Below, piece by piece: positions 4,758 through 49,087 of a stretch of DNA of 51,663 nucleotides. Numbering within the stretch: position 1 is the first letter of the stretch; every line of letters starts with the position of its first letter. This DNA comes from Microcaldota archaeon (GTDB lineage Archaea > Micrarchaeota > Micrarchaeia > Norongarragalinales > UBA8480): the NCBI GenBank assembly GCA_023247085.1, contig JAHFHC010000005.1:1-51663 (forward strand). The letters are read 5' to 3'. The position numbers were made by a program, and so were the translations under genes. Under the pieces are notes generated by a model, which saw only the letters and a program-made list of their open reading frames with translations, did not search any database and was not told where the DNA came from.

Positions 4758-4789
4758 TGAAAAACCTTAACAAATAGACGAAAAACAAG

Positions 4790-4799
4790 CTTAAAAAGG
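4790..4799 (-). promoter_or_regulatory. Candidate TATA box for giant A
   Basis: On the minus strand CCTTTTTAAG lies 33-42 nt upstream of the ATG at 4757, which would leave a leader of roughly 10 nt. This is a sequence-pattern call only. Confidence 0.3.
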
Positions 4800-4829
4800 C
4801 ACCGAACTTTCAGACAGTCCGCTTGGTGT

Positions 4830-4854
4830 TTTCTCGTCAGCCTGAGACAAGAAA
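4830..4854 (-). repeat. Intergenic hairpin (9-bp arms, 7-nt loop)
   Basis: Arms at 4830-4838 and 4846-4854 pair on the minus-strand RNA with eight Watson-Crick pairs and one G-U pair. It lies downstream of the AAA ATPase stop and about 75-95 nt before giant A. It could be a 3' end or processing structure; there is no strong T-tract beside it. Confidence 0.35.
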
Positions 4855-4943
4855 GAAAACTAGTTAAGATTGTTGATCAACGAGAATTTTAAACACAACA
4901 TCATTTGCTATTTCTGATTTTCAAATTCACTAGAGTTACCTTA

Positions 4944-4972
4944 GGTTTCCCTAGGAAATTTACGAGGAAACC
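4944..4972. repeat. Inverted repeat GGTTTCC / GGAAACC
   Basis: Perfect 7-bp arms at 4944-4950 and 4966-4972 enclose a 15-nt loop, starting about 47 nt beyond the ATPase stop codon at 5019. Possible transcript-end structure; function unknown. Confidence 0.3.
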
Positions 4973-5018
4973 GCACCCCGGATCATTATAGTATCAATGG
5001 CAATAAAACGCTGAGAGA

Positions 5019-6053: not shown

Positions 6054-6071
6054 AATGTGTTTTGGGCACAG

Positions 6072-6082
6072 ATATTTATAAA
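6072..6082 (-). promoter_or_regulatory. TATA box of the AAA ATPase gene
   Basis: Minus-strand TTTATAAATAT sits 19-29 nt upstream of the ATG, a spacing that implies leaderless or near-leaderless transcription. Confidence 0.5.
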
Positions 6083-6220
6083 GTTAAGCATTATAGCGTT
6101 TTACTTAATTTGAGTTAAGCAAAAGACAGTTATTGTGCAATTCTAATTGTTTTGTAATTGTGGGCAACCAGAACGTCGTTGTCACATAATTCACCTATAT
6201 AAAGTTAACTAATTTTTGAT

Positions 6221-7240: not shown

Positions 7241-7893
7241 ATTTCTTCAACTCGTTTTAAAGCTTCATAATAGCGCTCGCCGTTTTCAATGTAACGCGGG
7301 TCAATGGCGGTTTTTAAGTGTCCTTCTTTGTTCAACTTAAACAAGAAAACGCTAAGAAGCCACCCAAGATAGCGACGCGTTGCATAACGCTGTAAAAACG
7401 AAATACGCAATTCGCCTTCTTTCATGAACCAAGTCCAAGCTGCAAGTGCCTCTTCAACAGTTATTGGTAGGTATCCGCGCATCGCGTACGCCATTAAGTC
7501 AATCAAGCGACGTTCAAGTCCGGGCACTCTAAGATTGCTTTCGGCTACGGTGTCAGTTTCCATGAAGTCGCTCCGGCTTATTATCACTATAATATCCTGA
7601 ATTTCGCTGCCTTTCGCACTAGCCCACTCTTCGTTAACTGCCTTTGGCTTACGCTCTCCAGAATAAACAATACAGTCGCGAAACTCCCCATCGCTTGCTA
7701 GTAACCGTTTTACTTCACCATGGGCTACTTTTTCACATTCAATGAAAACCATGTTTCTACGTACATTGTGAAACGTGTGCATAAACTCAGCTAAGTCCCA
7801 CAATGCAAAGGGTAAGTGCGGCATATTACTCGTTATCCTTTTGCCAATTCTCTTAGTCCGCTCAGGAAGCTTGTCATATAATTCATTTGTCAT
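7237..7893 (-). CDS. Putative antitoxin partner of the AbiEii-type protein
   Basis: A 218-aa soluble protein, first gene of a two-gene unit and overlapping the nucleotidyltransferase gene by 4 nt. It has an alpha/beta core (NMVFIECEKVAHGEVKRLL, then DIIVIISRSDF) followed by a helical part with RVPGLERRLIDLMAYAMRG. This resembles the short partners that precede AbiEii toxins in Bacteroidetes and archaea, which I recall as DUF6577-like; I cannot confirm the family by search. The start of the protein contains no obvious helix-turn-helix motif, unlike classical AbiEi. Three 16-nt direct repeats span its start codon, so autorepression is plausible. Confidence 0.65.
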   Translation of the reverse strand: MTNELYDKLPERTKRIGKRITSNMPHLPFALWDLAEFMHTFHNVRRNMVFIECEKVAHGEVKRLLASDGEFRDCIVYSGERKPKAVNEEWASAKGSEIQDIIVIISRSDFMETDTVAESNLRVPGLERRLIDLMAYAMRGYLPITVEEALAAWTWFMKEGELRISFLQRYATRRYLGWLLSVFLFKLNKEGHLKTAIDPRYIENGERYYEALKRVEEI

Positions 7894-28900: not shown

Positions 28901-31900
28901 ATCTGCTACTAGTGTTATAGCGTCTTTTGTGCACTCTTCAATTTGCACTGCGTCTTTAATTGCTTCGCGTGAAAAGCCAAGCCCTTGGTTGTAGCCAAAT
29001 TGTTGTGGGCCATAAAATGAGCCGGGTAAAACGGGTTGTACTCCAAAGCGTTGGCCGTATAAGTTAGAACCGTAGCCATAGTCATCGCGGTAAACTGCGC
29101 CGGCTGTTCTATCGAAGCCAATGCGTTGTCCAACTGGTTGTCCAACGAACCCTTGGCCGCATTGGGGCATGAAAGCGGGGTTTTGGTTAACTGAATAGCC
29201 TTGGCAAGCTAGTGGTGACATGAATGCGTTTTGTTGGTACATTGAAAAGGCGGTTTGGCACATTTGGCAAGTTGCGCCTGTATTCCAGTATGGTAGTGAG
29301 CTGCTTGTCGGTGCAGTGATTTGGTGTGGCGAGCATGCTCCGCAACTCCAAGTTGATGGCTTGACTTGTTGGCAGCCATTGCATTCTGAAGCGCCATTTT
29401 GTGAGGGTGAACAAACGTCGCATGACCAAACGTTTGGTGTTGGTAAACCGGCTAGTACTCCTTGTTGGTAAGTTTGACCGCCGTAGCCATATGCTCCTTG
29501 CGAGTATGCACCGCCGTAGGTTATTCTTAATCCATCTAAGCTGCAAGTTGGGTCTGCGGATAAACGTAGTGGGATTGTTGCTGCATCTGACATGTACGGA
29601 GGAACGGGTATAAGTGTAATTGATGGCGGTAAAGGCGCGGAATTTGCCCCAGTTGCAACTTGAACTTGGCAATTTGGACAATTTACATCAACTAGAATTG
29701 GCATTTCTGAAACATCGCGAACTGTTCCAATTCTTGCGTTGAATGAGACGATGCAATTTGTTTTTGACGTTACATTGTCAAGTACTTTTAATGAAAGAGT
29801 TGATTCGCTGTTTGGTTCAATTGTTGTTGAAGTGGGGAATATCTTTAATGGAACTGGATCGCCACCACAGTTTATTGTAGAGCCAACTTTTACTGGTTCG
29901 TTTAACCCATTTGAAAGTGTAACATGTTGTGCTTGTGGTTCAAGAGAAGAACCTGTGAATTCAAGTGTGTCTGGTGTGATTGTTAAAAAGTTTTTAGGTA
30001 CAACTGTAACTGCACAGCTTTCAAATGGCGCAAAGTCCGGGTGTTCAACCCTTACCCCAATTTCGCCTATTCCACTTGGGGAAACGTCTATTCTGTAGCG
30101 ACCGTTTAACCCGTTGTTGTTTGTCGCGTCGCCAAGCACTTGTTCGGGTTCACTGCCTGAAAATGGTGCGCCGCTGCATTCATATGTGCTTATTGAAGCG
30201 TCGGTTACGAAGTTTCCTGTTTTGTCTCGGACTAGGATAGTTATTTTGCCGGGTTGCAAGGCGTTGATTTGCGCTGGTGCAGTTGTAACTGTAAATGCGT
30301 TTGTCCCGCTGATTGAAAGTGTTAAAGGGATTTGATAGACTTTGTCACCGCTGTGTAAGATTATTGTAAATGGAGTGCTTTGACTGGTTCTCAATGGCAA
30401 TAAGGTTAAGGAGAGTTTGGCTTTTTTGTTTGGTAACACTGAAAATGGCAAACTAAATGTTTTGCCGCTTGTTGCGGGCGGTACAGTTGTTTCACTCGTT
30501 GTTTCTCCTATAAACGAAATTTTTTGTGATGGTGCAAGCACTTGTTTAAAGTTTTTCACTGTGAAGTCGTTTGTTGAAATTGCAATTGAGTCAATTGAAA
30601 ATCCAGAGAGGATTTCAAATTCTGCGTTTAATTCTTTTGCTATTTGTGGTTGGAATGTCGAGGGGGTACCGCGGCTAGTTGAATCGAACAACGACATTTT
30701 CCAGCAGTAGTCTGCTTCGTTGCTGCAAGTTAGTGCTTGTTGTGAAACTGGGATCGTTTGCGAAACGAGACGCATGTTGCAAGTATCTGATTGTGAGAGT
30801 GTTTGTCCAGCGTCTAGTTTTTCGCGCAGTGTTTGTAGTAATTCAGTGTCGCTTGGGTACAATAATGGCCGGTTGTCTTTGAATGCAAATGCTTTGTAGA
30901 AGAGGTTGACATTTGTCCCTGGAGCCGCTGTTTTAGCTACTTTGACGTTTATTGAAAATTCTTTTGTGCCAGTAAAGCCACGTGGGAATGCATACTGGAG
31001 CCACTTTTTGTCTGTGTTTGGTGATGGTTGTCCATCGTAGCAAGTCTCATTTGCAGGTAACTGGGAATCACCTTGCACTAATGGTGAGCTGCTTGTGTCA
31101 AAAGAAGTGATTGTAGCTATGCTTGTGCTGGTGTCTTGTTCGTCGCCAGCTTGGAAGTAGAAGCCCGCGTTTTCGATGTTTTGTGGCATGTTTACTGCAA
31201 ATTTAGCAGCATAGGTTTCCCCGTTTTGTACTTCGCGAATTTTTGTATTGCGAGAGTCAAATAACCCAAGGTAAGATACGGTTACTCCTTGTGCAAGTGA
31301 AAGTGGGAACATTGATAGTGTTAAGTTTGCGAGTTCAGCTGGCCCGTATTTCTTTGTTGTTGAAGTGTAAGACAAGTAGCCAGGCGCAGTCGCGTGTAGT
31401 GTGAATTCTTTGTTTGCAGCAACTGGCAAAACGCAAGTTCCATTTTGAACTGTGCAGCTTACAACTGGCAGGCCGCCAACAAATACATCTATTGCTCCAT
31501 TTGGAACAAATTGGCCGGTTGATAAATCGCTGAGGAAAATAGTGAGATTTGCAGGTTGTTCAAGCAAGTCTATTGATAGCGGTATTGGCGTTGAGGAAAC
31601 ATCCGCTAAGTCGCTTTGTCCAAAAGCTGATGCTTTAGAGGCTTTTGCATAAACTTTGTAGGCACCGGCGCCAGTGTTTGCGGCGGATCCAGTTGGAGCT
31701 AGTGTTGTGGGTATTGTTGCGTTTACAAAACCTTCTGCACTTGCAGTTAGTGGAGGTATGCCGAGAAAGAATCCACCTGACCTAAATAGACTAACAACTG
31801 CGTTTGAAGCTGGGAATCCATCTTGTTTGACGTTTATTGTTACTTGCACTGAATTGCCAGTTGCAGCTTTAATTAATGAAATTGTTTTAACGTCTCCAGC

Positions 31901-33088
31901 TTGTAAGTCAGAGATAAAGCCAGGCAAATAGCCATTGGCATAAGCAGTTGCGTATACGCTTTTACCTTGAACCACACTTGTTGTGAACTCCCCATTTGCA
32001 GCGGTTTCTCCATTTTCAAGTAGCGAGTTTGCTGCAGCGTCGAATAACCTCACTTCAGCACCTACTGGCTCACGGTCTTCGCCTACAACAGTCAAAGTAA
32101 TTGTGGACTCTGGAGTTGCACGGGTCGTTAATTTAATTGTAGCATTATTGCTGGTTGCTGAAGGGATAAATTCTTTGCTCGCATCTGCAAAGCGAGGGTG
32201 AGTTACACGCACAGTGTAGCTTTTGCCGTATGAAACGTTTTGAAAACGAACTGAACCGTCAGAAGTGGTTGCTTCTGTTTTCACAACTGCTTCAGTTATA
32301 AGGTCAATTAATGAAACCCGCGCGCCTTGCACGCCAGTTGAGCCAGTTAGCACAAAAATTGAAACATCTCCAGATGAAGTTGGCGCAGCTACTTGTAGCG
32401 AAACGGTAATTGTTATTGGAGTATCTGATTCAAGTTGACCTTGAGTTACTGGCTCTTGAGTTGACTGGAACCCAGGCGCAGATACGCTTACAGTGCCTTG
32501 CGATAGTTTTGACTCTTCTATTGTAATTAATGCAGTTCCACTTGCATCAGTTTGTTTTTGAGTTGAAAAATCTCCATTGGCAAATGCGATTTGTACAAAG
32601 GCACCGTTTATCGGTTGGCTGCTTTGATCTAGTATTTTTATTGAAACGTCTTTTGTTGGCGGGGATAACGATTGAAGGGAAATAAACGGCGAAGTGCGGG
32701 AAGCTAAATCTGCAACGCTTCTAGTAGTGGGTGAAAATCCAGGCGCGGATATTCTTACTTGTGCATTTGAAGGCACGCCTTTTAAACTAACTGTTCCGCT
32801 TGCGCTGCTTGTTTGAGAAAGGGAAGATACTGATTGATTGTTAACTAATACGTCAACAGTTGCACTTGAAACTGGTAAACCCCGTGCATCTTTTACAGTG
32901 AATGAAATGTCTTTTTTTTCAACAGCTAAATCTGGAACAAGTAAAAACGCGAGGCCTGCAACTAACAGAATTATAACAAGTGGGACAACGAGGTGCGGCA
33001 ACGGCACTCCTTTTTCGCGTAGTGACTCAACAAATTCGAGGTATTTTTCTTTTATTTTTTGTAAGGGAGTTTTTTCCTCTTCAGCCAT
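25943..33088 (-). CDS. Giant membrane-anchored surface protein C (2381 aa)
   Basis: A 2381-aa protein. Residues 1-32 are charged and end in REKGVPLPH; one membrane helix follows (33-52). Then come Ig-like/carboxypeptidase-regulatory-like repeats (DARGLPVSSATVDVLVN, DQSSQPINGAFVQIAF). Blocks matching the other giants are APGYLSYTST near residue 569 and SGAPFSGSEPEQVLGD near 974. Residues about 1203-1313 form a low-complexity Gly/Tyr/Gln/Asn segment carrying four CxxC motifs (CDVC, CNGC, CGAC, CQMC). Near residues 2253-2298 a hydrophobic stretch (IVGSIAGSLLCFAPALNIAA, then IILGSLGGLATF) might be a second membrane-associated hairpin. It ends without a sorting signal. Same strand as the archaeosortase upstream and the glycosyltransferase unit downstream. 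Confidence 0.9.
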   Translation of the reverse strand: MAEEEKTPLQKIKEKYLEFVESLREKGVPLPHLVVPLVIILLVAGLAFLLVPDLAVEKKDISFTVKDARGLPVSSATVDVLVNNQSVSSLSQTSSASGTVSLKGVPSNAQVRISAPGFSPTTRSVADLASRTSPFISLQSLSPPTKDVSIKILDQSSQPINGAFVQIAFANGDFSTQKQTDASGTALITIEESKLSQGTVSVSAPGFQSTQEPVTQGQLESDTPITITVSLQVAAPTSSGDVSIFVLTGSTGVQGARVSLIDLITEAVVKTEATTSDGSVRFQNVSYGKSYTVRVTHPRFADASKEFIPSATSNNATIKLTTRATPESTITLTVVGEDREPVGAEVRLFDAAANSLLENGETAANGEFTTSVVQGKSVYATAYANGYLPGFISDLQAGDVKTISLIKAATGNSVQVTINVKQDGFPASNAVVSLFRSGGFFLGIPPLTASAEGFVNATIPTTLAPTGSAANTGAGAYKVYAKASKASAFGQSDLADVSSTPIPLSIDLLEQPANLTIFLSDLSTGQFVPNGAIDVFVGGLPVVSCTVQNGTCVLPVAANKEFTLHATAPGYLSYTSTTKKYGPAELANLTLSMFPLSLAQGVTVSYLGLFDSRNTKIREVQNGETYAAKFAVNMPQNIENAGFYFQAGDEQDTSTSIATITSFDTSSSPLVQGDSQLPANETCYDGQPSPNTDKKWLQYAFPRGFTGTKEFSINVKVAKTAAPGTNVNLFYKAFAFKDNRPLLYPSDTELLQTLREKLDAGQTLSQSDTCNMRLVSQTIPVSQQALTCSNEADYCWKMSLFDSTSRGTPSTFQPQIAKELNAEFEILSGFSIDSIAISTNDFTVKNFKQVLAPSQKISFIGETTSETTVPPATSGKTFSLPFSVLPNKKAKLSLTLLPLRTSQSTPFTIILHSGDKVYQIPLTLSISGTNAFTVTTAPAQINALQPGKITILVRDKTGNFVTDASISTYECSGAPFSGSEPEQVLGDATNNNGLNGRYRIDVSPSGIGEIGVRVEHPDFAPFESCAVTVVPKNFLTITPDTLEFTGSSLEPQAQHVTLSNGLNEPVKVGSTINCGGDPVPLKIFPTSTTIEPNSESTLSLKVLDNVTSKTNCIVSFNARIGTVRDVSEMPILVDVNCPNCQVQVATGANSAPLPPSITLIPVPPYMSDAATIPLRLSADPTCSLDGLRITYGGAYSQGAYGYGGQTYQQGVLAGLPTPNVWSCDVCSPSQNGASECNGCQQVKPSTWSCGACSPHQITAPTSSSLPYWNTGATCQMCQTAFSMYQQNAFMSPLACQGYSVNQNPAFMPQCGQGFVGQPVGQRIGFDRTAGAVYRDDYGYGSNLYGQRFGVQPVLPGSFYGPQQFGYNQGLGFSREAIKDAVQIEECTKDAITLVADYSFLQQPVPATGNLKVTLPDGSTKNVRVNVISAPIGPVGQIPFGAPNWNTACGISSVAVDAQIGLDYKFLANVVTQLTCPLSFTNFNYVVKDKDNNPLSQSCTVNINNNELTVNCDFSKDDKAKETLKRDKFIFIEVNTMSPQNPSAQIKVTIKATFETQAKLESDTTKVQPPVRAKVLRPTINVYAKADTGKEDSLCGERIQVKTPVVVDYTFPDGDSPTDRKLLIKNGGVQILDRPVSEQKSSFDFLDFNTIGSYSFEAWTKYGENSVSDSCQVTVVTEAPIIKSITPSYFLSADSKNYEWVYLFPESTTQVGTRVTLDAAAINLRGINSPNLKAKIEYLCQDGDKSIITQEYNFVKTKDGKNYVIDKARAGALPSLRFVKCSPLVNSNIPYLVKVTVFNNKDKLEEKYYDENNKPVDINKAAHVYILNYPEAPPINDQGKSALPEPISGLDACGRLNAPDISAIELTEEYPSGSGDFMRVVGSESLTPNKKMRATFCTTNRKYFSKEITLNLEYYDTTGAQRRIPIFEVNPPLATPLCVLDNNGKCSFEFNTNDFISPDAIHRLNLATPKGISFFATIGDPIESKRYFCNYWPSQTDPVCNSDKVEFKVATQNDAYAQNSHCRMLQPGNPNMLECDLKPTDQVKLPIGITVNTKAPSDYQGESTRDVDIDVKATFDDPAKTEEPDCNPNSLFAASFSTASQGKEIVCSLGGTGSSLGEKTELVAIKFIKKLTAGEDAFGWPTDHPLSLLRVQFYSIFGTNDDWLEKYYHYNFDLRNENGQLVREARYRSTPMQPPLYPTDTSKFGLYDLGINDVVKTHFSDSTGIVRYVGSNPETHLSHFEVRRRDYGVIQDCQPGPVGEAIVGSIAGSLLCFAPALNIAACPIILGSLGGLATFTTIQTLNNPKDPFSLLVSDTATCDASGTNPDIAISELFRAVPTSATTDISSSACVLIGSDASDAEDLMNQYANDYRAKCDLSKADAK

Positions 33089-38259: not shown

Positions 38260-39180
38260 ATGGCATTCATTCGGCGGAAAAAAAAAGGTAATACATTCTA
38301 CTATGAGTTAGTGGAAACCTTGCGGGAAAAAGACAAGATAAAACAGAGGGTATTGCAATATTTTCCAACGCTTGAAACGGCTAACCTTTACTGCGAGGAA
38401 AAGGGAATTAGAAAAATAGAAACGAAACTTTTAATTTCTCCAGCACTTGAAAAGCGATTAGATGGAAAACTAGCAGAATTAAACAAAGCACGACCATTGC
38501 CACGAGAAGTTGTTATTAACCTGCGCGACAAGTTCGAAATCGACATGACTTACAATTCCAACGCAATCGAAGGAAACACGCTGACATTACGTGAAACTTG
38601 GCTAGTTGTAAGGAAAGGAATAACAATCGGCGGCAAATCATTGCAGGAGCACTTGGAAGCAAAGAATCACGTTGAGGCGCTTCAAAGATTATTTGAACTT
38701 GTTGACGCTAAACGCACCATAACCGAAAATGATATCCTAAACTTACATACGCTTATTCTTGACAAAATAAATCCGCTATTTTCAGGCCAGTATCGGGACA
38801 GGCAAGTGTACATTTCAGGCTCTAGCCATGTGCCGCCAGCAGCTAGTGAAGTTCCAAAATTGGCGAAAAAAATAGTAGACGAACTGAACAATCGAGATAA
38901 AAAAACGAAAGCAGTTATCTCGGCCTCACGCGTCCATTATCTCGTTGCACAGATTCACCCATTCGTAGATGGAAATGGGAGGCTGGCAAGGCTACTTTTG
39001 AACTTAAGGTTGATGCGTGCTGGTTTTCCGCCAATTGTGCTGGAAAAAACTCAGCGTAAAAGTTACTATACTGCGTTGGAAAAAGCAGATGATGGCGACC
39101 AATACCCGATAACATCTATGATAGGGAAAAACGTCGAAAAAACACTGGATCTTTACCTGACCGCAGTTAAAGGTAAATGA
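38260..39180 (+). CDS. fic: Fic-domain protein (AMPylase-like, class II inhibitory motif)
   Basis: A 306-aa Fic protein, of a family that transfers AMP or another phosphate-containing group to target hydroxyls. The complete active-site loop HPFVDGNGRLAR is at residues 233-244. The inhibitory helix motif [S/T]xxxE[G/N] appears upstream as SNAIEG (S100 to G105), so activity is probably autoinhibited (class II). The first 60 residues are basic with an IRRKKKGNTFYYELVETLRE strand-helix, which could bind nucleic acid. It has its own promoter, flanked by two inverted operator-like sites. The targets are unknown; there is no adjacent antitoxin gene. Confidence 0.92.
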   Translation: MAFIRRKKKGNTFYYELVETLREKDKIKQRVLQYFPTLETANLYCEEKGIRKIETKLLISPALEKRLDGKLAELNKARPLPREVVINLRDKFEIDMTYNSNAIEGNTLTLRETWLVVRKGITIGGKSLQEHLEAKNHVEALQRLFELVDAKRTITENDILNLHTLILDKINPLFSGQYRDRQVYISGSSHVPPAASEVPKLAKKIVDELNNRDKKTKAVISASRVHYLVAQIHPFVDGNGRLARLLLNLRLMRAGFPPIVLEKTQRKSYYTALEKADDGDQYPITSMIGKNVEKTLDLYLTAVKGK

Positions 39181-39239: not shown

Positions 39240-42200
39240 ATGGTTGGCGAATTTGTTGTAAAGCAAGAAGGAAACAAGCGGTTGCTTATTATTGACTATA
39301 AGGGCGCTAGTGTTTCGCCGGATTTAGCGGCGTATCCGCAAGTGATGCGCGACGTTATACAGAAACTACAGACTAATGAAGCTGATGAAGTTGTTTTGTC
39401 TGAATATTATGAGCGGATTTACAATGAAGAGCAAACTGCGATGCTTCGCGGTATTGCGGATTTAGTTACGAAACTTGAAACTGAAACAGTTTGGAGCCCA
39501 TCGCACTTGGGCACTAATTATTCGGATAAGAAAACTCTTTCAGCTCGCCACGATGTTGTACTTGGAATTTTCAATGAAACACTCGTGGATCCGTTTGCAG
39601 CGTACATGGAATTAATCAAGATACTAAAAGAAGAAACGGCGGAGTTGCATAAAACTCAAGAGGCTGGCGATGAAAAAGGAGTTGAAGATGTAAAAGTTTA
39701 CATTGGCACGCTGCAGTTCATGAAGAACTTATTTGATTTAACGTCAATGATTAAACGTAGCAAACAATATCTTGCTCAACTAGGCAAGTTGCCTGAAGGC
39801 AGGGCGGTTTATCACTCGTTGTTCGAAAGTGCAATTAAGCCATCATTTATCGGCAGCAGAATTTTCTTCACTGGAACTGAAACACTTGAATTAGTTGACC
39901 AGTACGAAGTGCTATCATCTAAAGTTTACATTTACAAACACCCGGAAAAAATCGAGTATTTGTATTACATTAATCCGCCCGAATACACTTTACCGCCAGA
40001 GAAATATTTCCTCTTGCAAAAGACAAAAGAAGTTGTTGCAGGCCATCGTCCAACGAGTGTTGGGTTCATGGACATGGAACAGGCACGCAAGTACTTCCGC
40101 AAAATTTACGTTGCCACTATAACTGACCTCGCCAATCAAAATAACATAAACCTCAGCGTAGAGGAAAAAGAAGAATTGGCAACAATTGTTTCGCGTTACA
40201 CAATTGGCTACGGTATTCTTGAATTACTTTTATCAGACCGGCAGCTTACTGACGTGTACATTGACTCGCCACTTGGTAGTAAACCAATTTATCTAGTGCA
40301 TTCAAAGTACGGCCAATGTCAAACGAACATTATTTTTTCTGAAGAGGAAGCCAAGTCAACAGTATCTCGATTTAGAGCATTGTCTGGCAGGCCGTTTGAC
40401 GAAGCACACCCTATTCTTGACTTTGACTTAGCGGACTTGCAAACACGCATAGCTGCAATTGGAAAACCACTTGCGGTTGACGGCACTGCATTTGCACTTC
40501 GTTTACACAAGGACACACCGTGGACACTTGCACAATTTGTTGACTTTAAAATGATGCCGCCACTAGCTGCGGGCATACTATCCTTCTTCGTTGACGCACA
40601 AGCGTCAATGTTGATAGTTGGAAGCAGAGGTAGTGGAAAGACAAGCATGTTGCAGGCATTGATGCAAGAAATTCCACAGAACTTGAGGATAATTGTCCAA
40701 GAAGACAGCGTTACAGGCGATTCCCAAATTGTTGTTGAACGCAACAGTAGACTTGAAAGAACTACTGTCGGCGAATTAATTGACGGATTAATTTCCAAAG
40801 GAGAAAAAATTGACATCAGCGGTAAAGAAATCGTGCCAGTGAACTCGGAAAACGTAAAGGTATTTTCGTTAAATAAGCAAGGAAAAATGCAGCTAACTGA
40901 AGTGAGTCAGTTCACACGCCATAAAGTTAACAAAGATATTTACGAGGTTAAAACTAGGAGCGGTCGGTGCATAAAGGTTACTCAAGATCATTCACTATTT
41001 ACAATAGGCGTAAATGGATTAGAAACCGTAAAACCAACTGAGCTCCAAGCAGGTTCATTCGTCGCAATTCCGAGCAAGTTACCAAATTCACAGCAAAATA
41101 TCCAAACAATCAACGTTGTCGATAAGTTGCCTTCAACTGCGTTTGTCTATATGCCTTTCGAAGGAATTGACCTAGTAAATTTAAAAGAAATCGCAAAGAA
41201 ACAAGGGTATTCAAAAACCACCCCAAGCGCATGGAAAAGATCAGGATTATTACCAATCTCAATAGCTAGAGAACTTAACTTGATTGAACGCACCACGCAC
41301 TTCAAAATAGATAATACCTCCACACCAATTCCAGTTGAAATTAAAATAGATGAACAACTAGCCACAGTCGCTGGCTTGTGGCTTGCCGACGGTTGCTACG
41401 ACGGCAAATATGCTTTAATATTATCAGTTGATGACGAAGAGAGCAGAACAGTAGTCAAAAACTTCGCCAAACAACTTGGGCTAAAGACTAGAATGCATAC
41501 TGATAAAGTTTCTCTTATAATTTCAAATACAAATCTAGTATTTCTATTCAAAGAAGTGCTTGGCTTACTGGGCAATTCTTATACTAAAAAATTCCCGCAG
41601 TGGGCATTTAATTTGGGAAGGCTCGAATTAGCAGGATTACTCCGCGGACTTTACAGTGGAGACGGCACAGTTTCTGCAAATGAAATAGTATACACTAGTT
41701 GTTCTCCAAATCTGATAAAGGACACGCAGCATGCGTTGAGTACCTTTGAAATAATCCCAAGATATCACACAGTAGAACGGGATAAAACTATACATTTACG
41801 AATTGGAGAAGTGGAACTACAAAAGAAATTTCAAGAAATTAATTTCTTACAAAGCTACAAACAAACGCGCTTGGCTAATCTATGCGCACGTATGAGCACA
41901 CACGCCACAACAAACGTAGTGCCACTCCCACACAAACTACTGGAAATTCTCAGCGGACAAGTGGCTACTTTCAACAGAAACGATTACATTTCACGTGGAA
42001 ACAAGCTTGGAAAACAAAAGCTTTCAAGCTACTTAGAACAAGCACAAGGATCTCCCGGAATAGAAGTAATTAGGAAAATACTAAATAGCGAAGTCTACTG
42101 GGATGAAGTAATTGAAGTTAAACAAGCACTGCACACCGGAACCTACGTATACGACTTTTCAGTTCCAGAATGTGAAAACTTCGTCTGCGAGAACATAATT

Positions 42201-43016
42201 GCACACAACACGCAAGAACTTCCCATTCCACAACTCAAGCAACTTGGATTTAATGTACAACGCTTGAAAACTAGGCCGCCATTGGGTGCACAAAGTGAGG
42301 CTGAAGTAAGTGCTGAAGATGCACTTCGCACTGCACTGCGTCTCGGTGACTCCGTGTTAATCGTTGGAGAAGTACGGTCAGGAGAAGCAAAAGCATTATA
42401 CGAAGCTATGCGAGTCGGTGCAGTTGGAAACGTAGTTATGGGCACAATTCACGGTGAAAGCGCATATTCAATTTGGGACCGAGTTGTAAACGACTTAGGC
42501 GTACCAACAACGTCGTTTAAAGCAACGGATATGACAATTGTTGCTGCACCTATTCGCTTTAAAGGGTCGTTAAAGCGCTATCGCAGATTAATTGAAATCA
42601 CTGAAGTGAAAAAGAATTGGAATGATGACCCCGGACGAGAAAATGGGTTTTTGAACTGGATGTTATTCGACGCAAATAAAGACAACCTCGAGTTCTTCAA
42701 AGATGAAGTGAAGGAAAGCGAGTGGATTAAGAAAGTGATGCGTAACCGCGGGTTGAAATATGAAGACGTGTGGAACGAAATCGTAACACGTGCAGCGAGC
42801 AAACAATACTTAATAGATGTGAAAAACAAGCACAATATTCCAAAGATACTTGAAGCAGATAATACTATTCGCGCGCATACAAAACTAATGATACTTGCTG
42901 AAAAGCACCGCGAAGAATTCGGTAAACTTGACCACAAACAAGTATTAGCAGACTGGCAAGAGTGGGTTGACAGCGTGCTAGTAAAACAAGTAATTGGATT
43001 GAAAACTCTCGGGTAA
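39240..43016 (+). CDS. Type IV pilus/secretion ATPase (VirB11/TadA-like) containing an intein
   Basis: A 1258-aa precursor of the type II/IV secretion ATPase family that powers pilus assembly in the cytoplasm. Walker A is GSRGSGKT at residues 461-468. The host Asp box is split: IIVQED ends at residue 489 and TQELPIP resumes at 991. The segment between (490-990) is an intein. After it come the Walker B region SVLIVGEVRSGEA and the His-box region GTIHGESAYSIWDR. Excision gives a 757-aa ATPase. The N-terminal 350 residues are a family-typical N-domain (TDVYIDSP, then the arginine-rich SGRPFDEAHPILD). It is first gene of the pilus locus, and only 6 nt separate it from the next gene. Confidence 0.92.
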   Translation: MVGEFVVKQEGNKRLLIIDYKGASVSPDLAAYPQVMRDVIQKLQTNEADEVVLSEYYERIYNEEQTAMLRGIADLVTKLETETVWSPSHLGTNYSDKKTLSARHDVVLGIFNETLVDPFAAYMELIKILKEETAELHKTQEAGDEKGVEDVKVYIGTLQFMKNLFDLTSMIKRSKQYLAQLGKLPEGRAVYHSLFESAIKPSFIGSRIFFTGTETLELVDQYEVLSSKVYIYKHPEKIEYLYYINPPEYTLPPEKYFLLQKTKEVVAGHRPTSVGFMDMEQARKYFRKIYVATITDLANQNNINLSVEEKEELATIVSRYTIGYGILELLLSDRQLTDVYIDSPLGSKPIYLVHSKYGQCQTNIIFSEEEAKSTVSRFRALSGRPFDEAHPILDFDLADLQTRIAAIGKPLAVDGTAFALRLHKDTPWTLAQFVDFKMMPPLAAGILSFFVDAQASMLIVGSRGSGKTSMLQALMQEIPQNLRIIVQEDSVTGDSQIVVERNSRLERTTVGELIDGLISKGEKIDISGKEIVPVNSENVKVFSLNKQGKMQLTEVSQFTRHKVNKDIYEVKTRSGRCIKVTQDHSLFTIGVNGLETVKPTELQAGSFVAIPSKLPNSQQNIQTINVVDKLPSTAFVYMPFEGIDLVNLKEIAKKQGYSKTTPSAWKRSGLLPISIARELNLIERTTHFKIDNTSTPIPVEIKIDEQLATVAGLWLADGCYDGKYALILSVDDEESRTVVKNFAKQLGLKTRMHTDKVSLIISNTNLVFLFKEVLGLLGNSYTKKFPQWAFNLGRLELAGLLRGLYSGDGTVSANEIVYTSCSPNLIKDTQHALSTFEIIPRYHTVERDKTIHLRIGEVELQKKFQEINFLQSYKQTRLANLCARMSTHATTNVVPLPHKLLEILSGQVATFNRNDYISRGNKLGKQKLSSYLEQAQGSPGIEVIRKILNSEVYWDEVIEVKQALHTGTYVYDFSVPECENFVCENIIAHNTQELPIPQLKQLGFNVQRLKTRPPLGAQSEAEVSAEDALRTALRLGDSVLIVGEVRSGEAKALYEAMRVGAVGNVVMGTIHGESAYSIWDRVVNDLGVPTTSFKATDMTIVAAPIRFKGSLKRYRRLIEITEVKKNWNDDPGRENGFLNWMLFDANKDNLEFFKDEVKESEWIKKVMRNRGLKYEDVWNEIVTRAASKQYLIDVKNKHNIPKILEADNTIRAHTKLMILAEKHREEFGKLDHKQVLADWQEWVDSVLVKQVIGLKTLG
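40707..42209 (+). mobile_element. Intein with LAGLIDADG homing endonuclease
   Basis: A 501-codon in-frame insertion. It begins with Ser (SVTGDSQIVV) as the nucleophile instead of the usual Cys. The block B TxxH is in VTQDHSLF, with block F near YVYDFSVPECENFVCEN and block G IIAHN. The +1 extein residue is Thr. Two LAGLIDADG-like helices are present, VAGLWLADGCY and LAGLLRGLYSGDGTV, so it is probably a full-length and possibly active homing element. Removal restores QEDTQELP of the ATPase. Confidence 0.92.
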
Positions 43017-43477: not shown

Positions 43478-45568
43478 ATGCCAATTAAGCGTACTGAATC
43501 AAAAGGACTGTATAGTGGAGACAAGGCAATTAAGCAGTACGTTGAGAGGCCACGCGTGGATTGGTTTGTCAAGTTCGTGAACTTTTCCAAGAAGTACTTT
43601 TCTTCGTACGGTAAAGGGGCAAAGTTAACAATTGAACAACGCGAATTGTTCGATTTTTTAAGTTATAAAGTTACAGCTGAAGAGTTCAGGGCAGCTGAGA
43701 TAGGCGCAATGATCGTTGGGTTAATTGCCACGATTTTTGCAGTGTTCGTAGCTGCGCTTATTCTAGGTACAGAGAGCCCAATATTTTTCATAGCCGCTTT
43801 GATTTGCTTTATTTTTCCACTTATTGGGTTCATGTTAATTGCGTATCACCCGCAGCAGGAAGCGAAGCGTGAACAGACGCTAGCACTTGGGTACGTTTCG
43901 GAGATTGTTAATTATATTATTTCAAGCATGCGGTTGACGCCAAACTTGGAAAAAGCAATTGAGTTCACTGCTTCGCACGGCAGGGGAAAAATTGCAGATG
44001 ATATGAAGAAGTTAATTTGGGATGTGCAAATTGGAAAATGTTCGTCTGTAGAAGAGGGTTTAGATGAATTGGCTTACAAGTGGGGCAAGTATAATGACGA
44101 TTTCAAACAAGCTTTGATGTTGATTCGCGCTAGTGTGCTTGAGGCGGATACAGCGAAGCGAGAGGCGCTGCTTGAAAAAGCTTCTGAAGATGTGCTTGAA
44201 GGAAGCAAAGAGAAAATGGATCGCTATGCTAGAGAGTTATCGCAGCCAACAGTTTACTTGTATTATTTTGGCGTGTTGCTTCCGTTGATGTTGGCAATTG
44301 TGCTTCCAATTGGCGGGACTCTTTCAGGTGGAAGTTTTGCACTTGCTAAACCAGAGATACTTGCATTGATTTACTTAGTTGGGTTACCGCTCGGGTTATT
44401 TGCACTTGGGTCAAATATTTTGGGTAATCGACCGCCGACATATATACCACCAGATGTTGATGAAAATTTCCCAGGGTTACCTGCAAAAGGAACGATGAAA
44501 ATTGGCGGCGCAAGTATTCCAATTATGCCAGTTGCAATTCTTGTTTTCATCGCAACGTTATTTATTGGGTTTACATTAGACCAGGCAATTACAGTTAGTC
44601 CTACCCCGATGTTCGAGCGGGCTGAATTACTAGCGGCAAAGCCACATATTGAACTATTTGGAAATACGGCTGAACAATTGTTCATTGGCCTCTTTTCGAT
44701 TTTGTCAGCAATTGTAGGTGCAGCGCTTGCAATTTCAGTTTACTTATATGGAACTTATAGTGCTCGAAAGAAAATCCAAGACGATATTCGAGTTATGGAA
44801 GGAGAGTTTAAAGACGCGATTTATGTTCTTGCTAGTCGACTTGGAGAAAACAGACCTTTAGAAGACGCGTTGAAGCACGCAGTTGAATTCTTGCCTAATA
44901 GTAAAATTGCAAGTAGAATATTTCGCAAAACGCTGGACAACATTACAACTATGGGAATGACTATTGATGATGCGGTTTTTGACCCTAATTTTGGTGCATT
45001 AAAAAACGTACCTTCGCGAATGCTAGGGAGCGGCATGCGTATGACAATTGATTCAATTGGACTCGGGGTAAATGTAGCCGCCAAGTCATTAATTGGCTTA
45101 GCGCTTCAGTTACGCAACGCTGAAAAAATTGATTTGCTTCTACGCAACTTATTGTCAAGCGTAACTTCAATGTTGAAAACAATGGGCACATTTATTGCGC
45201 CAATTGTACTTGGAGTTGTCACGAGCTTACAAAGTGTGATTGTTAAAGCAATGTCGTCAAACTGTGCGTCAGATGCAAGTGCACAAACTGCAACTCCGGG
45301 CGTAAGTGGGTTTGGCGGCGCTAGTAACTTAAGTTCAATGTTTTGTAAAAAAGGGGCTGAATCATCTTCAGCTGACCCTGCAACATTTACATTGATAATG
45401 GGAATTTACGTGCTAGAAGTGGTTATTTTACTCACTTATTTCAACTCGCAAGTTGAAGATTCAAACAATAAACTACACACTTACATTGCAATTTCAAAAG
45501 CCTTGCCAATTGCGACGCTTATATTTTCAGCAGTGGCCTACTTTGCAGGAACAAGCATTGGCGGCTAA
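43478..45568 (+). CDS. Type IV pilus assembly platform protein (TadC/T2SF family)
   Basis: A 696-aa polytopic membrane protein with about nine helices. Two copies of the type II secretion F domain are visible. The first has the cytoplasmic helices EIVNYIISSMRLTPNLEKAIEFTA and IGKCSSVEEGLDELAYKWG. The second has FKDAIYVLASRLGENRPLEDALKHAVEF and ISTMGMTIDDAVFD-like sequence. Membrane spans include about 74-96 and the final pair, GIYVLEVVILLTYF and IATLIFSAVAYFAG. These proteins anchor the ATPase at the membrane and transmit its motion to pilin assembly. It pairs with the intein-containing ATPase upstream and precedes six pilin-like genes. Confidence 0.9.
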   Translation: MPIKRTESKGLYSGDKAIKQYVERPRVDWFVKFVNFSKKYFSSYGKGAKLTIEQRELFDFLSYKVTAEEFRAAEIGAMIVGLIATIFAVFVAALILGTESPIFFIAALICFIFPLIGFMLIAYHPQQEAKREQTLALGYVSEIVNYIISSMRLTPNLEKAIEFTASHGRGKIADDMKKLIWDVQIGKCSSVEEGLDELAYKWGKYNDDFKQALMLIRASVLEADTAKREALLEKASEDVLEGSKEKMDRYARELSQPTVYLYYFGVLLPLMLAIVLPIGGTLSGGSFALAKPEILALIYLVGLPLGLFALGSNILGNRPPTYIPPDVDENFPGLPAKGTMKIGGASIPIMPVAILVFIATLFIGFTLDQAITVSPTPMFERAELLAAKPHIELFGNTAEQLFIGLFSILSAIVGAALAISVYLYGTYSARKKIQDDIRVMEGEFKDAIYVLASRLGENRPLEDALKHAVEFLPNSKIASRIFRKTLDNITTMGMTIDDAVFDPNFGALKNVPSRMLGSGMRMTIDSIGLGVNVAAKSLIGLALQLRNAEKIDLLLRNLLSSVTSMLKTMGTFIAPIVLGVVTSLQSVIVKAMSSNCASDASAQTATPGVSGFGGASNLSSMFCKKGAESSSADPATFTLIMGIYVLEVVILLTYFNSQVEDSNNKLHTYIAISKALPIATLIFSAVAYFAGTSIGG

Positions 45569-45655: not shown

Positions 45656-46153
45656 ATGAAATTTATACAAAGAAAAAAACCAAGAACTTTAAGGGGACAG
45701 GCATTTGAAACAATGATGCTAGTTATCAGCGTAATTGTCGCACTTGCTATTCTTGGAGTTTTGCTTGGGATTTTAAACACGTTTAGCTTCAGTGGAAGCG
45801 ATGCTGAACAAGTGTTTAAAGAGGAGTTGAAAAAAGTTGGTGGAAGCTATTCGCCAGGTACAACGCCTAGAGACGCGACTATGAAAGCAGGAAAAACAAT
45901 CAACGCAAGAGTAGTTACTGAAGATACAACCGTTTTGCAAGATACAGTTAAATTTATAGTGGCTTCGGAATTAAACGACGCAATAGAAACAGTTGATGGC
46001 GACAAGGCCGTTAGAGCAAAGAGGGACGTTAAAGTTACTTTTTCAGTTTGTGGAGACCCGTTGCTTGGAAGCGCAGGGGTTTATGTGATCAGCATTGCGC
46101 CTGAAAAGAGGGGCACAAACGCAATAGATGCTTGTCTAGCCGCACTTCATTAA
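45656..46153 (+). CDS. Pilin-like protein 1 (class III signal peptide)
   Basis: A 165-aa protein with a class III signal peptide. The basic leader KFIQRKKPRTLRG is followed by Q and the hydrophobic helix AFETMMLVISVIVALAILGV; prepilin peptidase would cut after RG. The mature domain is small and mixed alpha/beta with two cysteines. In archaeal type IV pilins the hydrophobic helix forms the filament core. It is first in the run of pilin-like genes and has a Shine-Dalgarno-like site, which might mean high expression. Confidence 0.8.
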   Translation: MKFIQRKKPRTLRGQAFETMMLVISVIVALAILGVLLGILNTFSFSGSDAEQVFKEELKKVGGSYSPGTTPRDATMKAGKTINARVVTEDTTVLQDTVKFIVASELNDAIETVDGDKAVRAKRDVKVTFSVCGDPLLGSAGVYVISIAPEKRGTNAIDACLAALH

Positions 46154-46426: not shown

Positions 46427-47164
46427 ATGTCGAAGACTATTGAATTCAAGACGTGCAGAGTGAAACGTCGACACGAGTGGCTTTCACGTGGGCAGGCAAG
46501 TGCGCCAATTGAACTCGTTGTTGCGGTTATAATCTTAGTTGCTAGTATGGGCTTGGCGTTTACAGTGTTGCAAAGCACGCAGAGCGCGCAGTGTATTGAT
46601 AAGACAAAAAGTCAAATGCGCGGCTTGGAAGCAGTTATGCTAGACGTTGCACTTGGTTCCCCTTCAACGTTGCGGGAAACTAAACTAGAATTATCCTCAT
46701 GTGGAGCGGATAGTATTGAAGCGATTAGAATTGTTTATTATGATTCACCTAGCTATTGCGCGAAGTGTTCAACTAGCGCGGCTGGTTGTTGGAAAATTGA
46801 ACCGCTTGCGTATAGGGCTTCTGAAAAAGAATATTTTGTTGTGCCAGACGCGGTTATTTGTGTTAACAACATGCCTGGCCGAGTCCTCCTAGAAGCTGAT
46901 GAAGACTCGTGTTCATCTTCTGGGCTTATTTCAACACCTCACACGTCAGGCGAAGCAGGTTGTCCGGTGAATGTAAAAGATCACAAGAGCATCAACTGCG
47001 GTTTGCCTCCGACGTTGTCGAGTTTATCGAATAGTAAATTATTAACTATGGGCAAAGCACCTGGAGAGACGCAGTACACGGTCAGGATTGCAAAGGCTTT
47101 TGACACTGCTTCTGGAGACCCGCGGCTAAAAATATGCTTTATGGGTAAAGAGCAAGTGACTTGA
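46427..47164 (+). CDS. Pilin-like protein 3 (Cys-rich)
   Basis: A 245-aa protein. The leader ends VKRRHEWLSRG, then Q and the helix ASAPIELVVAVIILVASMGL; the cut would fall at RG|Q. The exterior domain has about a dozen cysteines (YCAKC, AGCWK, DSCSSS, AGCPV, INCGL), likely disulfide-bonded, and no recognised fold. Its TGA stop overlaps the TTG of the next gene, if that start is used. Probably a minor pilin or tip subunit. Confidence 0.78.
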   Translation: MSKTIEFKTCRVKRRHEWLSRGQASAPIELVVAVIILVASMGLAFTVLQSTQSAQCIDKTKSQMRGLEAVMLDVALGSPSTLRETKLELSSCGADSIEAIRIVYYDSPSYCAKCSTSAAGCWKIEPLAYRASEKEYFVVPDAVICVNNMPGRVLLEADEDSCSSSGLISTPHTSGEAGCPVNVKDHKSINCGLPPTLSSLSNSKLLTMGKAPGETQYTVRIAKAFDTASGDPRLKICFMGKEQVT

Positions 47165-47826
47165 ATTACATGACAAACATTTGGGGCAAGTGTAGAAAAC
47201 GTTCAACGAAAAGTAAGGGGCAGTTGGAGCTTAACATCTTGACTAAAATGGCAATGCTTTTTTTCATAATTTCGCTTTCTTTTATTGCACTTAACATCAG
47301 CAATACCGAGAAAAGCGCGCTGTGTGGCGAACAGGCGTTAGCAACTGGAAAAATAATTGCTTCAGATATTAATCAAGCATTATCTGCACCAGTTGAAGAC
47401 GTGCGTATTGTTTACAAGTTCGAGCAGACAATTGCAGTTAGCAAAGATAAATTTGGAGAACGGTACGAAGTGTTGCTTGCAGAGCATGAAAATCCAGCGT
47501 CAACTCAATTCAGCGTCATTGTTAAGCCAAGCAGCGACGTTAATTGCGAGCGCAGAGTAAATTTGCTTTACGATAAGTCAAAAGTACAAACTGAATTTTT
47601 TGAAAATGGTAATCCGGTTGTTTTGCAAAGCGGGATTTCTCCTGGCGAAGACGTAGCTGTACTTAAACCATCTGACCGCGATTTAAATAAGCGCGCTAAG
47701 TTTCTCGTTATTTTAAAATGTACTGATAAAAGCGCAGGGCCAGGCGGAATAGTTCACGTGAAGTTTGACAACTGTGAGAATCCAGATGCGAGTGCGTGTA
47801 GCCCTATTACAGCGTGTGGTGCTTGA
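47161..47826 (+). CDS. Pilin-like protein 4
   Basis: A 221-aa protein. The TTG at 47161 overlaps the previous stop; an ATG at 47170 (three codons later) is the alternative. The leader KCRKRSTKSKG is followed by Q and LELNILTKMAMLFFIISLSF, with prepilin cleavage expected at KG|Q. The mature domain is beta-rich with several cysteines (ALCGEQ, VNCERRV, LKCTDKS). It sits in the coupled minor-pilin run. Confidence 0.78.
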   Translation: MNYMTNIWGKCRKRSTKSKGQLELNILTKMAMLFFIISLSFIALNISNTEKSALCGEQALATGKIIASDINQALSAPVEDVRIVYKFEQTIAVSKDKFGERYEVLLAEHENPASTQFSVIVKPSSDVNCERRVNLLYDKSKVQTEFFENGNPVVLQSGISPGEDVAVLKPSDRDLNKRAKFLVILKCTDKSAGPGGIVHVKFDNCENPDASACSPITACGA

Positions 47827-47828
47827 AA

Positions 47829-48395
47829 ATGAAGCGTGGATTTATTGGACCAATTGGCGATGATATACCTAGCATATTTCCGATTGTTGCTGGAATGTTA
47901 TTGTTCATAAGCACTATTTTGTACGCAAACGCGCAAGTAGATGCACGCAATAGCGAATTGTTGCAACAAGAAGCTACGCAGAAACTAGCTTATCTTGCTA
48001 CTCAAAAAGCGTCATTTCAACCAGGCGAATTTCAAAGTATTTGTAAAAACTCATTGCGTGGTTTTGCTGAAAATAATGGGTTGAAATTTGCAGTTGTTGT
48101 TAAAAAGTTTTGTGAAAAGGGGTGTACGCGCTGCGGTAATGGGATTGACTTATTGAATTCAAATGTATTCAACGAAGATGAGATGAGAAACTCGCCAGCG
48201 TTTGACCCCAATTATGTTTGCACTAGCGAAAAGCAGCCAATACTAGATGAGTTTAACGCAGCTAGGCTTGATGTGTCCAACGCACCGAAAGACGCAGTCG
48301 TATTAACGTATCCATTTACAGTGCCTTGTCCGGATGATGCATCTCCAGTGAAAGGATTAGCAACATTAAACGTAATTGTGTGGAAATCAAAATGA
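47829..48395 (+). CDS. Pilin-like protein 5
   Basis: A 188-aa protein from the ATG at 47829, two nucleotides after the previous stop; a GTG five codons upstream is less likely. It starts with MKRG, then FIGPIGDDIPSIFPIVAGML as helix, so the signal has the RG| site but Phe at +1 and a very short leader. The mature part contains KKFCEKGCTRCGNG, possibly a small metal site or disulfide pair. Its stop overlaps the next gene's ATG. Confidence 0.72.
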   Translation: MKRGFIGPIGDDIPSIFPIVAGMLLFISTILYANAQVDARNSELLQQEATQKLAYLATQKASFQPGEFQSICKNSLRGFAENNGLKFAVVVKKFCEKGCTRCGNGIDLLNSNVFNEDEMRNSPAFDPNYVCTSEKQPILDEFNAARLDVSNAPKDAVVLTYPFTVPCPDDASPVKGLATLNVIVWKSK

Positions 48396-49087
48396 AAACT
48401 CGGGGTCAAGCGGCAATTTTTGACGGCATCATGTTTTTGCTACTTGTAAGTTTTTCAGTTGCGCTTATGTTTTCATTTTTGTCAGATTATGGCGCTAACC
48501 AAGCGCATACTTTGCGTAATTCGCACTTGCTAAATTACGTGCAAGGGATTGGAAAATCCGTTTACAACATAGATGTCTCTACATTAAAAACAACGGATTT
48601 GAACACCGTGGGTCAACGTTGGAGTTTTGACAATTGTGATACACTTGGTAAATTCAGGTTAAACACAGTTGCAGATTTGTTGAAACGGGATTTATCTGAC
48701 CATAAGTTTAACAACAAGTTTGGCGACAGTGAAGTTGCAAATGCGCCGGGTAAGTTAGCATTGCGGTGTGCGTTGTTTGAACTCATGAAGCCAGTTGTTG
48801 GAAGCGGGTATGATTACCAAGCAGAGATACTTGATGCAGATTCAACACCGTTATTTGCGCCGTTTCAACTTGACACAAATGATCCTGAACCCCGATTAGT
48901 GACAACTTTAGCTGAAAGTGACCCGCTTTACCAAGTAGCTAAGGTTAATGGCTGTGAGTCAATTGCACTTAATTTGAAGGGAAAGCAACTACTTGCTATT
49001 TCAACACCGTTTAAAGTTTTTGACGAAGCGGGTCAAGCTCATGGGCACCAATTGCGAATATGCATGTGGCCAAGTGAAAGCACTTAA
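48392..49087 (+). CDS. Pilin-like protein 6
   Basis: A 231-aa protein from the ATG at 48392, which overlaps the previous TGA by 4 nt. A GTG four codons earlier is possible but would break the coupling. It starts MKTRG, then QAAIFDGIMFLLLVSFSVAL; cleavage at RG|Q. The mature domain has few cysteines and no recognised fold (VGSGYDYQAEILDADSTPLF is beta-like). Last of the six pilin-like genes. Confidence 0.78.
   Translation: MKTRGQAAIFDGIMFLLLVSFSVALMFSFLSDYGANQAHTLRNSHLLNYVQGIGKSVYNIDVSTLKTTDLNTVGQRWSFDNCDTLGKFRLNTVADLLKRDLSDHKFNNKFGDSEVANAPGKLALRCALFELMKPVVGSGYDYQAEILDADSTPLFAPFQLDTNDPEPRLVTTLAESDPLYQVAKVNGCESIALNLKGKQLLAISTPFKVFDEAGQAHGHQLRICMWPSEST

What the first reader, a model, noticed from the sequence alone, without database searches (positions are those of the whole stretch)
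40707..42209. Intein in the Asp box of a pilus ATPase, with Ser as first residue
The 501-residue intein sits between QED and TQEL of the nucleotide-binding core, so the ATPase cannot work until splicing. It starts with Ser, not Cys, and keeps two LAGLIDADG helices. Splicing could act as a post-translational switch on pilus assembly.
Basis: partly seen in the sequence, partly recalled or inferred. Interest (0 to 1): 0.55.

Follow-up and report, generated by a model that had tools for sequence, protein, structure and literature searches.

The report
Homing intein in archaeal pilus motor
A self-removing, self-copying protein insert sits in the ATP-binding core of the motor protein of a tiny archaeon's pilus machinery; the same insert, at the same spot, turns up across many small archaea while a sister species lacks it, so it looks like a mobile parasite rather than a switch.

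Summary
A 501-residue intein (40707-42209) splits a GspE/FlaI-type ATPase (39240-43016) between QED and TQEL. It has Ser1, all class 1 splicing residues, a C-terminal His-Asn, a +1 Thr, and a LAGLIDADG endonuclease with both acidic residues. Ser1 is ordinary for class 1. The 'switch on pilus assembly' is not supported. A same-genus species has the ATPase 98.7% identical with no intein. Of 26 readable orthologues in the order, 6 carry it, each among empty neighbours; two of the six are 173-177 aa mini-inteins. It belongs to a family found across DPANN archaea: 45 of 48 hits of a genome scan sit at this ED|T junction, in two paralogous ATPase types. Splicing and endonuclease residues are invariant in 42 of 42 full-size copies, endonuclease dN/dS is about 0.1-0.24, and in 3 of 10 close pairs the intein is clearly younger than its host gene (one pair leans the other way). 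So it is a spreading, homing intein. The same ATPase also has intein sites at Walker A and after Walker B. I found this insertion site in no paper the searches listed. Splicing and cutting themselves are untested.

The parts
39240..40706 (+). N-extein of the GspE/FlaI-type ATPase (489 residues, incl. ~200-residue N-terminal region and Walker A)
   Evidence: ORF; orthologues; T2SSE; fold of the 98.7% identical empty orthologue matches afGspE 2oap and FlaI 4ihq/4ii7
40620..40643 (+). Walker A GSRGSGK|T of the host (site of a different, Cys1 intein in G068, G074 and G132)
40698..40706 (+). Asp box residues QED immediately before the intein (box name recalled)
   Evidence: aligned QED|TQEL in empty orthologues
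40707..42209 (+). 501-residue class 1 intein with LAGLIDADG homing endonuclease
   Evidence: Pfam, NCBIfam, junctions, model and Foldseek
40707..40709 (+). Ser1, N-terminal nucleophile
   Evidence: S in 44 of 44 family members
40980..40991 (+). Block B T-x-x-H (TQDH, T92 and H95)
   Evidence: T92 and H95 invariant in 42 of 42 full-size members
41367..41393 (+). First LAGLIDADG motif VAGLWLADG (D228)
   Evidence: D228 invariant in 42 of 42
41637..41666 (+). Second LAGLIDADG motif LLRGLYSGDG (D319)
   Evidence: D319 invariant in 42 of 42
42147..42209 (+). Blocks F and G, VYDFSVP...IIAHN (D483, H500, N501)
   Evidence: D483, H500, N501 invariant in 42 of 42; HN in 44 of 44
42210..43016 (+). C-extein, begins with +1 Thr (TQELPIP...), incl. 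stop
   Evidence: +1 Thr in 43 and Ser in 1 of 44 family members
42363..42380 (+). VGEVRS after Walker B (site of a third, Ser1 intein in G110 and G126)
43478..45568 (+). T2SSF/TadC-like membrane platform protein (696 aa), partner gene
   Evidence: Pfam T2SSF E 1.5e-4, 22.1 bits, below its cut-off of 25.2
45656..46153 (+). Pilin-like protein (class III-like leader RGQAFE then hydrophobic helix); similar leaders in ORFs 46427-47164, 47161-47826, 48380-49087
   Evidence: read by eye; no Pfam hit

Best explanation
This is a class 1 homing intein of a DPANN-wide family fixed to one site, the Asp box (ED|T) of GspE/FlaI-type pilus/secretion ATPases. After translation Ser1 starts an N-O acyl shift, the +1 Thr takes over the N-extein, Asn501 cyclises, and QED is joined to TQEL to give a normal 757-residue ATPase (inferred from invariant residues, not shown). 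At the DNA level its LAGLIDADG endonuclease cuts intein-free alleles at the conserved Asp-box codons, and repair copies the intein in (inferred). The element persists by this homing, with repeated gain and loss, because the site is too conserved to mutate and imprecise deletion kills the motor. The immediate function is self-propagation. No regulation of pilus assembly needs to be assumed.
For: Exact junctions against an empty same-genus allele 98.7% identical over 748 residues. Carriers are 6 of 26 readable orthologues in the order and need 6 changes on the host tree, 6 forced by starred branches, the most possible. 45 of 48 loci of a genome scan are at the same ED|S...HN|T junction, 4 of these 45 with one end missing or frameshifted. 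S1 and HN in 44 of 44, +1 T/S in 44 of 44. Splicing residues T92, H95, D483 and endonuclease residues D228, D319, K294 in 42 of 42. Endonuclease dN/dS 0.09-0.24 in the 7 of 10 pairs that gave a value. Intein younger than host at synonymous sites, with intervals that do not overlap, in 3 of 10 pairs; L091/L103 intein 3 of 1548 bp different, against 304 mismatches in 8832 aligned bp overall. Two mini-inteins of 173-177 aa without endonuclease in G121 and G132.
Against: No splicing or cutting was measured. Intein and host distances correlate (rho 0.62 in 36, 0 of 500 permutations as high), so much of the spread may be within lineages or vertical with loss. The AU test does not reject one clade for the copies in FlaI-type hosts, and the order's four full-size inteins form one side of a branch, though weakly supported. 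One of 10 pairs (L075/L079) leans the other way, with intein pS 0.58 above host 0.45. No co-conversion tract is seen around the window's own site against G128, and no donor of its copy was found (best identity to another full-size copy 47-48%).
Confidence: 0.86

Rival explanations
1. A conditional splicing switch: the intein stays unspliced until a signal (temperature, redox, ATP or partner binding) and so gates pilus assembly, as proposed for RadA and DnaB inteins.
For: It lies in the catalytic core of an ATPase, as does the Pho/Tsi RadA intein for which conditional splicing is shown (PMC5790916, passages). A Cys near the C-terminal splice site (residue 494 here) is present in 38 of 44 family members and could be redox-sensitive (speculation).
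Against: Absent from a 98.7% identical congener and from 20 of 26 readable orthologues in the order; Cys494 is not invariant, being A, T or S in 6 of 44; the endonuclease is intact and under purifying selection, whereas the RadA cases are mini-inteins that have lost it.
Confidence: 0.07
2. Ancient vertical inheritance from a DPANN ancestor with many independent precise losses; homing is no longer at work.
For: Intein and host distances correlate, and the order's full-size inteins are compatible with one clade.
Against: Endonuclease residues kept in 42 of 42 full-size copies and low endonuclease dN/dS suggest ongoing use; three pairs have inteins younger than their hosts; losses would have to be exact and repeated to leave 20 of 26 readable orthologues empty.
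Confidence: 0.12
3. A decayed or non-splicing insertion: the ORF is a chimera or the ATPase gene is dead.
For: None beyond the lack of an experiment. The copy L098 elsewhere in the family is frameshifted.
Against: Frame open, all catalytic residues kept, and the extein shows no amino-acid change against G128 over the 360 codons upstream and 210 downstream of the junction.
Confidence: 0.02

Closest known systems
Mja KlbA intein (class 2) and its orthologues
   Same: Also an intein in an archaeal ATPase of this superfamily (recalled for MJ0781). In this order two paralogous FlaI-type ATPases carry KlbA-like inteins (G069 C1, G068 C12: Ala1, SN|C; the G069 copy matches 2jmz at 2.5e-12).
   Different: Different site (TGHxG|C, downstream of Walker B) and different chemistry: Ala1, Ser before the last Asn, +1 Cys (PMC4031507 passages), against Ser1, His-Asn, +1 Thr here.
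Haloarchaeal MCM/CDC21 inteins, four sites in one ATPase
   Same: Several homing inteins at close, conserved sites of one ATPase, scattered presence, sites sometimes doubly occupied (PMC10643990 abstract and passages); here Walker A, Asp box and post-Walker B sites, with G132, L066, L070, L077 (Walker A + Asp) and L074, L090 (Asp + post-Walker B) doubly occupied.
   Different: Host is a pilus/secretion motor, not a replication protein; lineage is DPANN; homing is not tested.
Tko Pol-2 intein PI-PkoII (2cw7), TliVMA (7qss), PI-PfuI (1dq3)
   Same: Same architecture, Hint splicing domain plus LAGLIDADG endonuclease; best structural matches.
   Different: 16-19% identity, different hosts and sites.
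Pho/Tsi RadA inteins (conditional splicing)
   Same: In an ATPase core (P-loop).
   Different: Mini-inteins without endonuclease; the window's copy is a full homing intein.

Membership tests
Class 1 intein | N-terminal Cys or Ser | tested here: met
   Ser1; 44 of 44 family members
Class 1 intein | Block B T-x-x-H and block F Asp | tested here: met
   T92, H95, D483 in 42 of 42 full-size members
Class 1 intein | C-terminal His-Asn followed by Cys/Ser/Thr | tested here: met
   HN 44 of 44; +1 Thr 43, Ser 1
Class 1 intein | Hint fold | tested here: met
   model pLDDT 93.9; Foldseek to inteins
Class 1 intein | Excises and ligates exteins | not testable with these tools
   needs expression; borders agree with the empty allele
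LAGLIDADG homing endonuclease intein | Two LAGLIDADG motifs with acidic residues | tested here: met
   D228, D319 in 42 of 42; LAGLIDADG_3 4.3e-16
LAGLIDADG homing endonuclease intein | Selected endonuclease and lateral spread | tested here: met
   for the family: dN/dS 0.09-0.24 in 7 pairs; intein younger than host in 3 of 10 pairs, one pair leaning the other way. For the window's own copy no donor was found
LAGLIDADG homing endonuclease intein | Cuts the empty allele | not testable with these tools
   empty alleles exist
Class 2 (KlbA) intein | Ala1, Ser at the penultimate position, +1 Cys | tested here: not met
   Ser1, His, +1 Thr
GspE/FlaI-type T2SS/T4P ATPase (host) | T2SSE fold with Walker A, Asp box, Walker B | tested here: met
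   Pfam T2SSE; 2oap 6.2e-28, FlaI 4ii7 3.1e-27, TadA/CpaF 8rkd 1.7e-22
FlaI archaellum motor or TadA equivalog | Score over NCBIfam equivalog cut-off | tested here: not met
   archaellum_moto 127 of 550 bits, TadA 123 of 373 bits (the query was the intein-split protein, which lowers scores)
Conditional (regulatory) intein | Splicing depends on a signal | not testable with these tools
   no experiment; distribution speaks against it

The most novel reading that the evidence does not exclude
Pilus/secretion motor ATPases are a hub for an actively homing intein network in DPANN archaea: at least four intein sites in one ATPase superfamily, the same Asp-box intein in two paralogous motors, and species-to-species copies so recent that the intein differs by 3 bp while the host gene has diverged. 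If these pili take part in DNA uptake or cell contact, the parasite would sit in the very machine that brings it new hosts, and splicing would also gate that machine.
Probability: 0.1. Interest if true: 0.7.

Novelty: new member of a known kind. Interest (0 to 1): 0.42.

Why it matters
It adds a DPANN-wide intein family at an insertion site I found described nowhere (nine searches; a table in a 2023 paper lists 2 DPANN genomes with one intein, passage). Empty and filled alleles that differ by about 8% of DNA within one genus make homing and splicing directly testable, and the recent transfers are a marker of gene flow among these hard-to-culture archaea. The functional idea of a pilus switch should not be carried forward as a finding.

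Tried and rejected
Co-conversion around the window's own site: mismatches to G128 are even along the gene, 6 of 90 bp upstream and 9 of 90 downstream of the junction against 173 of 2244 overall; rejected.

A synonymous-codon footprint of homing (AGG at -19 and CCC at +15, each 6 of 6 carriers against 5 of 20 empties; sites with p<0.01 were 2 of 40 near and 4 of 994 far) was not repeated in 30 distant carriers (AGG 9 of 30 against 8.7 expected; CCC 1 of 28 against 3.8 expected); treated as chance or local. These 30 leave out the six FlaI-type copies, three order copies, and L072 and L103 as near-duplicates.

Two independent jumps into FlaI-type ATPases, suggested by the first tree: the AU test allows one clade (p 0.76, and the held tree scored higher); rejected as shown.

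Exchange between the window's order and Diapherotrites: not supported.

Viral route: a scan of viral contigs gave one relative only (1 of 22 pattern matches), 29% identical, at another site (L107).

Assembly forks: the G117 contig ends one base past QED, and a G076 contig ends nine bases before the junction while another contig of that genome runs through it with a 216-bp identical overlap. This could mean mixed alleles in the population; it cannot be told from assembly artefact.

Pairs were picked after the trees were seen, as the closest pairs; 7 of 10 do not show a younger intein with separate intervals, and one of these leans the other way.
Full report
Observation. The ORF at 39240-43016 (+) is open for 1258 codons. 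Its two ends belong to a type II/IV secretion ATPase and its middle to an intein with a LAGLIDADG domain. The DNA puts the borders at 40706|40707 and 42209|42210, i.e. QED|SVTGDS...IIAHN|TQEL. All class 1 residues are there: Ser1, T92 and H95, D483, H500-N501, +1 Thr. The endonuclease keeps D228, D319 and K294. The AlphaFold2 model (39 sequences, pLDDT 93.9, pTM 0.92) matches solved inteins with endonuclease best (2cw7, 7qss, 1dq3).

Host. The intein-free orthologue of the same genus was modelled (pLDDT 78.6); its best structural matches are archaeal GspE (2oap), FlaI (4ii7, 4ihq) and TadA/CpaF (8rkd). It falls below the NCBIfam cut-offs for FlaI and TadA, so it is best called a GspE/FlaI-type ATPase of its own subfamily. 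Downstream lie a T2SSF/TadC-like gene (weak Pfam match below cut-off) and four ORFs with class III-like pilin leaders read by eye. 'Pilus ATPase' is a fair inference. The gene is near-universal: 27 of 29 genomes of the window's order have it and 127 of 132 genomes sampled from another DPANN order.

Same spot, with and without the intein. In the window's order 26 orthologues can be read at the site (27 less G117, whose contig stops one base past QED). Six carry an Asp-box intein (the window, G076, G096, G125 at 496-510 aa; G121 and G132 at 177 and 173 aa, without endonuclease), 20 are empty. On the host tree the six need six changes, all forced by well-supported branches, the most possible. The nearest relative, G128, is 98.7% identical in 748 residues and 92.3% in DNA (173 of 2244 different) and is empty; G129 of the same genus is also empty.

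More sites in the same motor. G068, G074 and G132 have a Cys1 intein directly after the Walker A lysine, and G110 and G126 a Ser1 intein after VGEVRS following Walker B. In all, 10 of the 26 genomes carry 11 inteins at three sites. Paralogous FlaI-type ATPases of G068 and G069 carry Ala1...SN|C inteins of the KlbA kind at a fourth site (the G069 copy resembles 2jmz). This is the pattern known from haloarchaeal MCM (four sites; PMC10643990, abstract and passages).

A DPANN-wide family. A scan of 84,980 species genomes with the four full-size order inteins gave 48 loci. 45 are at the same ED|S...HN|T/S junction in T2SSE ATPases: by record title 10 Aenigmatarchaeota, 9 Nanoarchaeota, 8 Diapherotrites/Iainarchaeum, 7 Woesearchaeota, 4 Pacearchaeota, 3 Micrarchaeota, 4 otherwise labelled. 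Six of the 45 hosts are FlaI-type (L086, L094, L095, L096, L101, L102), 39 of the window's type (host typing by eye from the motifs). The other three hits (L104-L106) are in other proteins. Within the 132-genome sample 7 of 127 orthologues have a frame of 1274 aa or more; their frame lengths equal those of L067, L070, L076, L077, L082, L085 and L089, so they are taken to be those loci. The window lies most likely in Micrarchaeota, judging by titles of its relatives; this is inference.

Is it moving? In 44 delimited members S1, HN and +1 T/S are universal; in 42 full-size ones the splicing and endonuclease residues are invariant. In 10 close pairs, chosen after seeing the tree, endonuclease dN/dS is 0.09-0.24 in the seven that give a value, and in three (L078/L081, L086/L095, L091/L103) the intein's synonymous divergence lies below that of the host gene with intervals that do not overlap; in one (L075/L079) it lies above. 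L091/L103 differ by 3 of 1548 bp in the intein and by 0 of the next 158 bp, while their 8.8-kb loci differ by 304 mismatches in 8832. That is what a recent homing event with a short co-converted flank would leave. Against this, intein and host distances correlate (rho 0.62 of 36), so most spread may be within lineages.

Mechanism, step by step. Shown: position, borders, residues, empty alleles, selection on the endonuclease and lateral copies in relatives. Inferred: splicing chemistry, inactivity of the precursor, cutting of empty sites. The literature says class 1 uses Cys1 or Ser1 (PMC4031507 passages), that inteins lie in conserved sites because these escape loss and host immunity (PMC2814812 abstract and passages), and that endonuclease is selected in the spreading phase of the homing cycle (PMC1654191, start of abstract). 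This case fits all three.

Switch. No evidence here bears for it beyond position. It cannot be ruled out without splicing assays; the known regulatory RadA inteins have lost their endonuclease (PMC5790916 abstract and passages).

Novelty. Searches for intein with P-loop/insertion site, DPANN, KlbA, Micrarchaeota, secretion ATPase, VirB11, type IV pilus, homing cycle and Woesearchaeota listed no paper on this site. Only open-licence papers are held, and of those listed only passages of five were opened, so this is weak evidence of absence. It is a new member of a known kind with an unusually clear natural experiment.

Noticed in passing
G000:C3 14515-16140 (L038, ORF 3532-7353 -): The window's genome has one further intein (Cys1, HN|T) with LAGLIDADG domain, in the MCM helicase.
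   Followed up: partly
L057 3451-7842: G132's ATPase of 1464 aa carries two inteins 22 residues apart in the mature protein: a full-size one at Walker A and a 173-aa mini-intein at the Asp box.
   Followed up: yes
L036 2633-5569 and L037 2734-5637: Class 2-looking inteins (Ala1, SN|C) in FlaI-type ATPases of G069 and G068; a review states that all class 2 inteins known then were KlbA orthologues.
   Followed up: partly
genome of L086 (G305): 37 matches to the intein splicing model (many are halves of one intein) in a 1.1-Mb Aenigmatarchaeota genome, unusually rich; the 1856-aa ATPase L086 seems to carry a second intein upstream.
   Followed up: no
L074, L090, L066, L070, L077: Doubly occupied ATPases elsewhere in DPANN: Asp box plus post-Walker B (L074, L090) or Walker A plus Asp box (L066, L070, L077; the Walker A insert of L077 spans 699 aa).
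   Followed up: partly
window 38260-39180: A Fic/DOC-family protein lies just upstream of the ATPase (Fic E 5.1e-21).
   Followed up: no
window 8052-16907 and 25943-33088, both -: Two very long ORFs of 2951 and 2381 aa, not examined.
   Followed up: no
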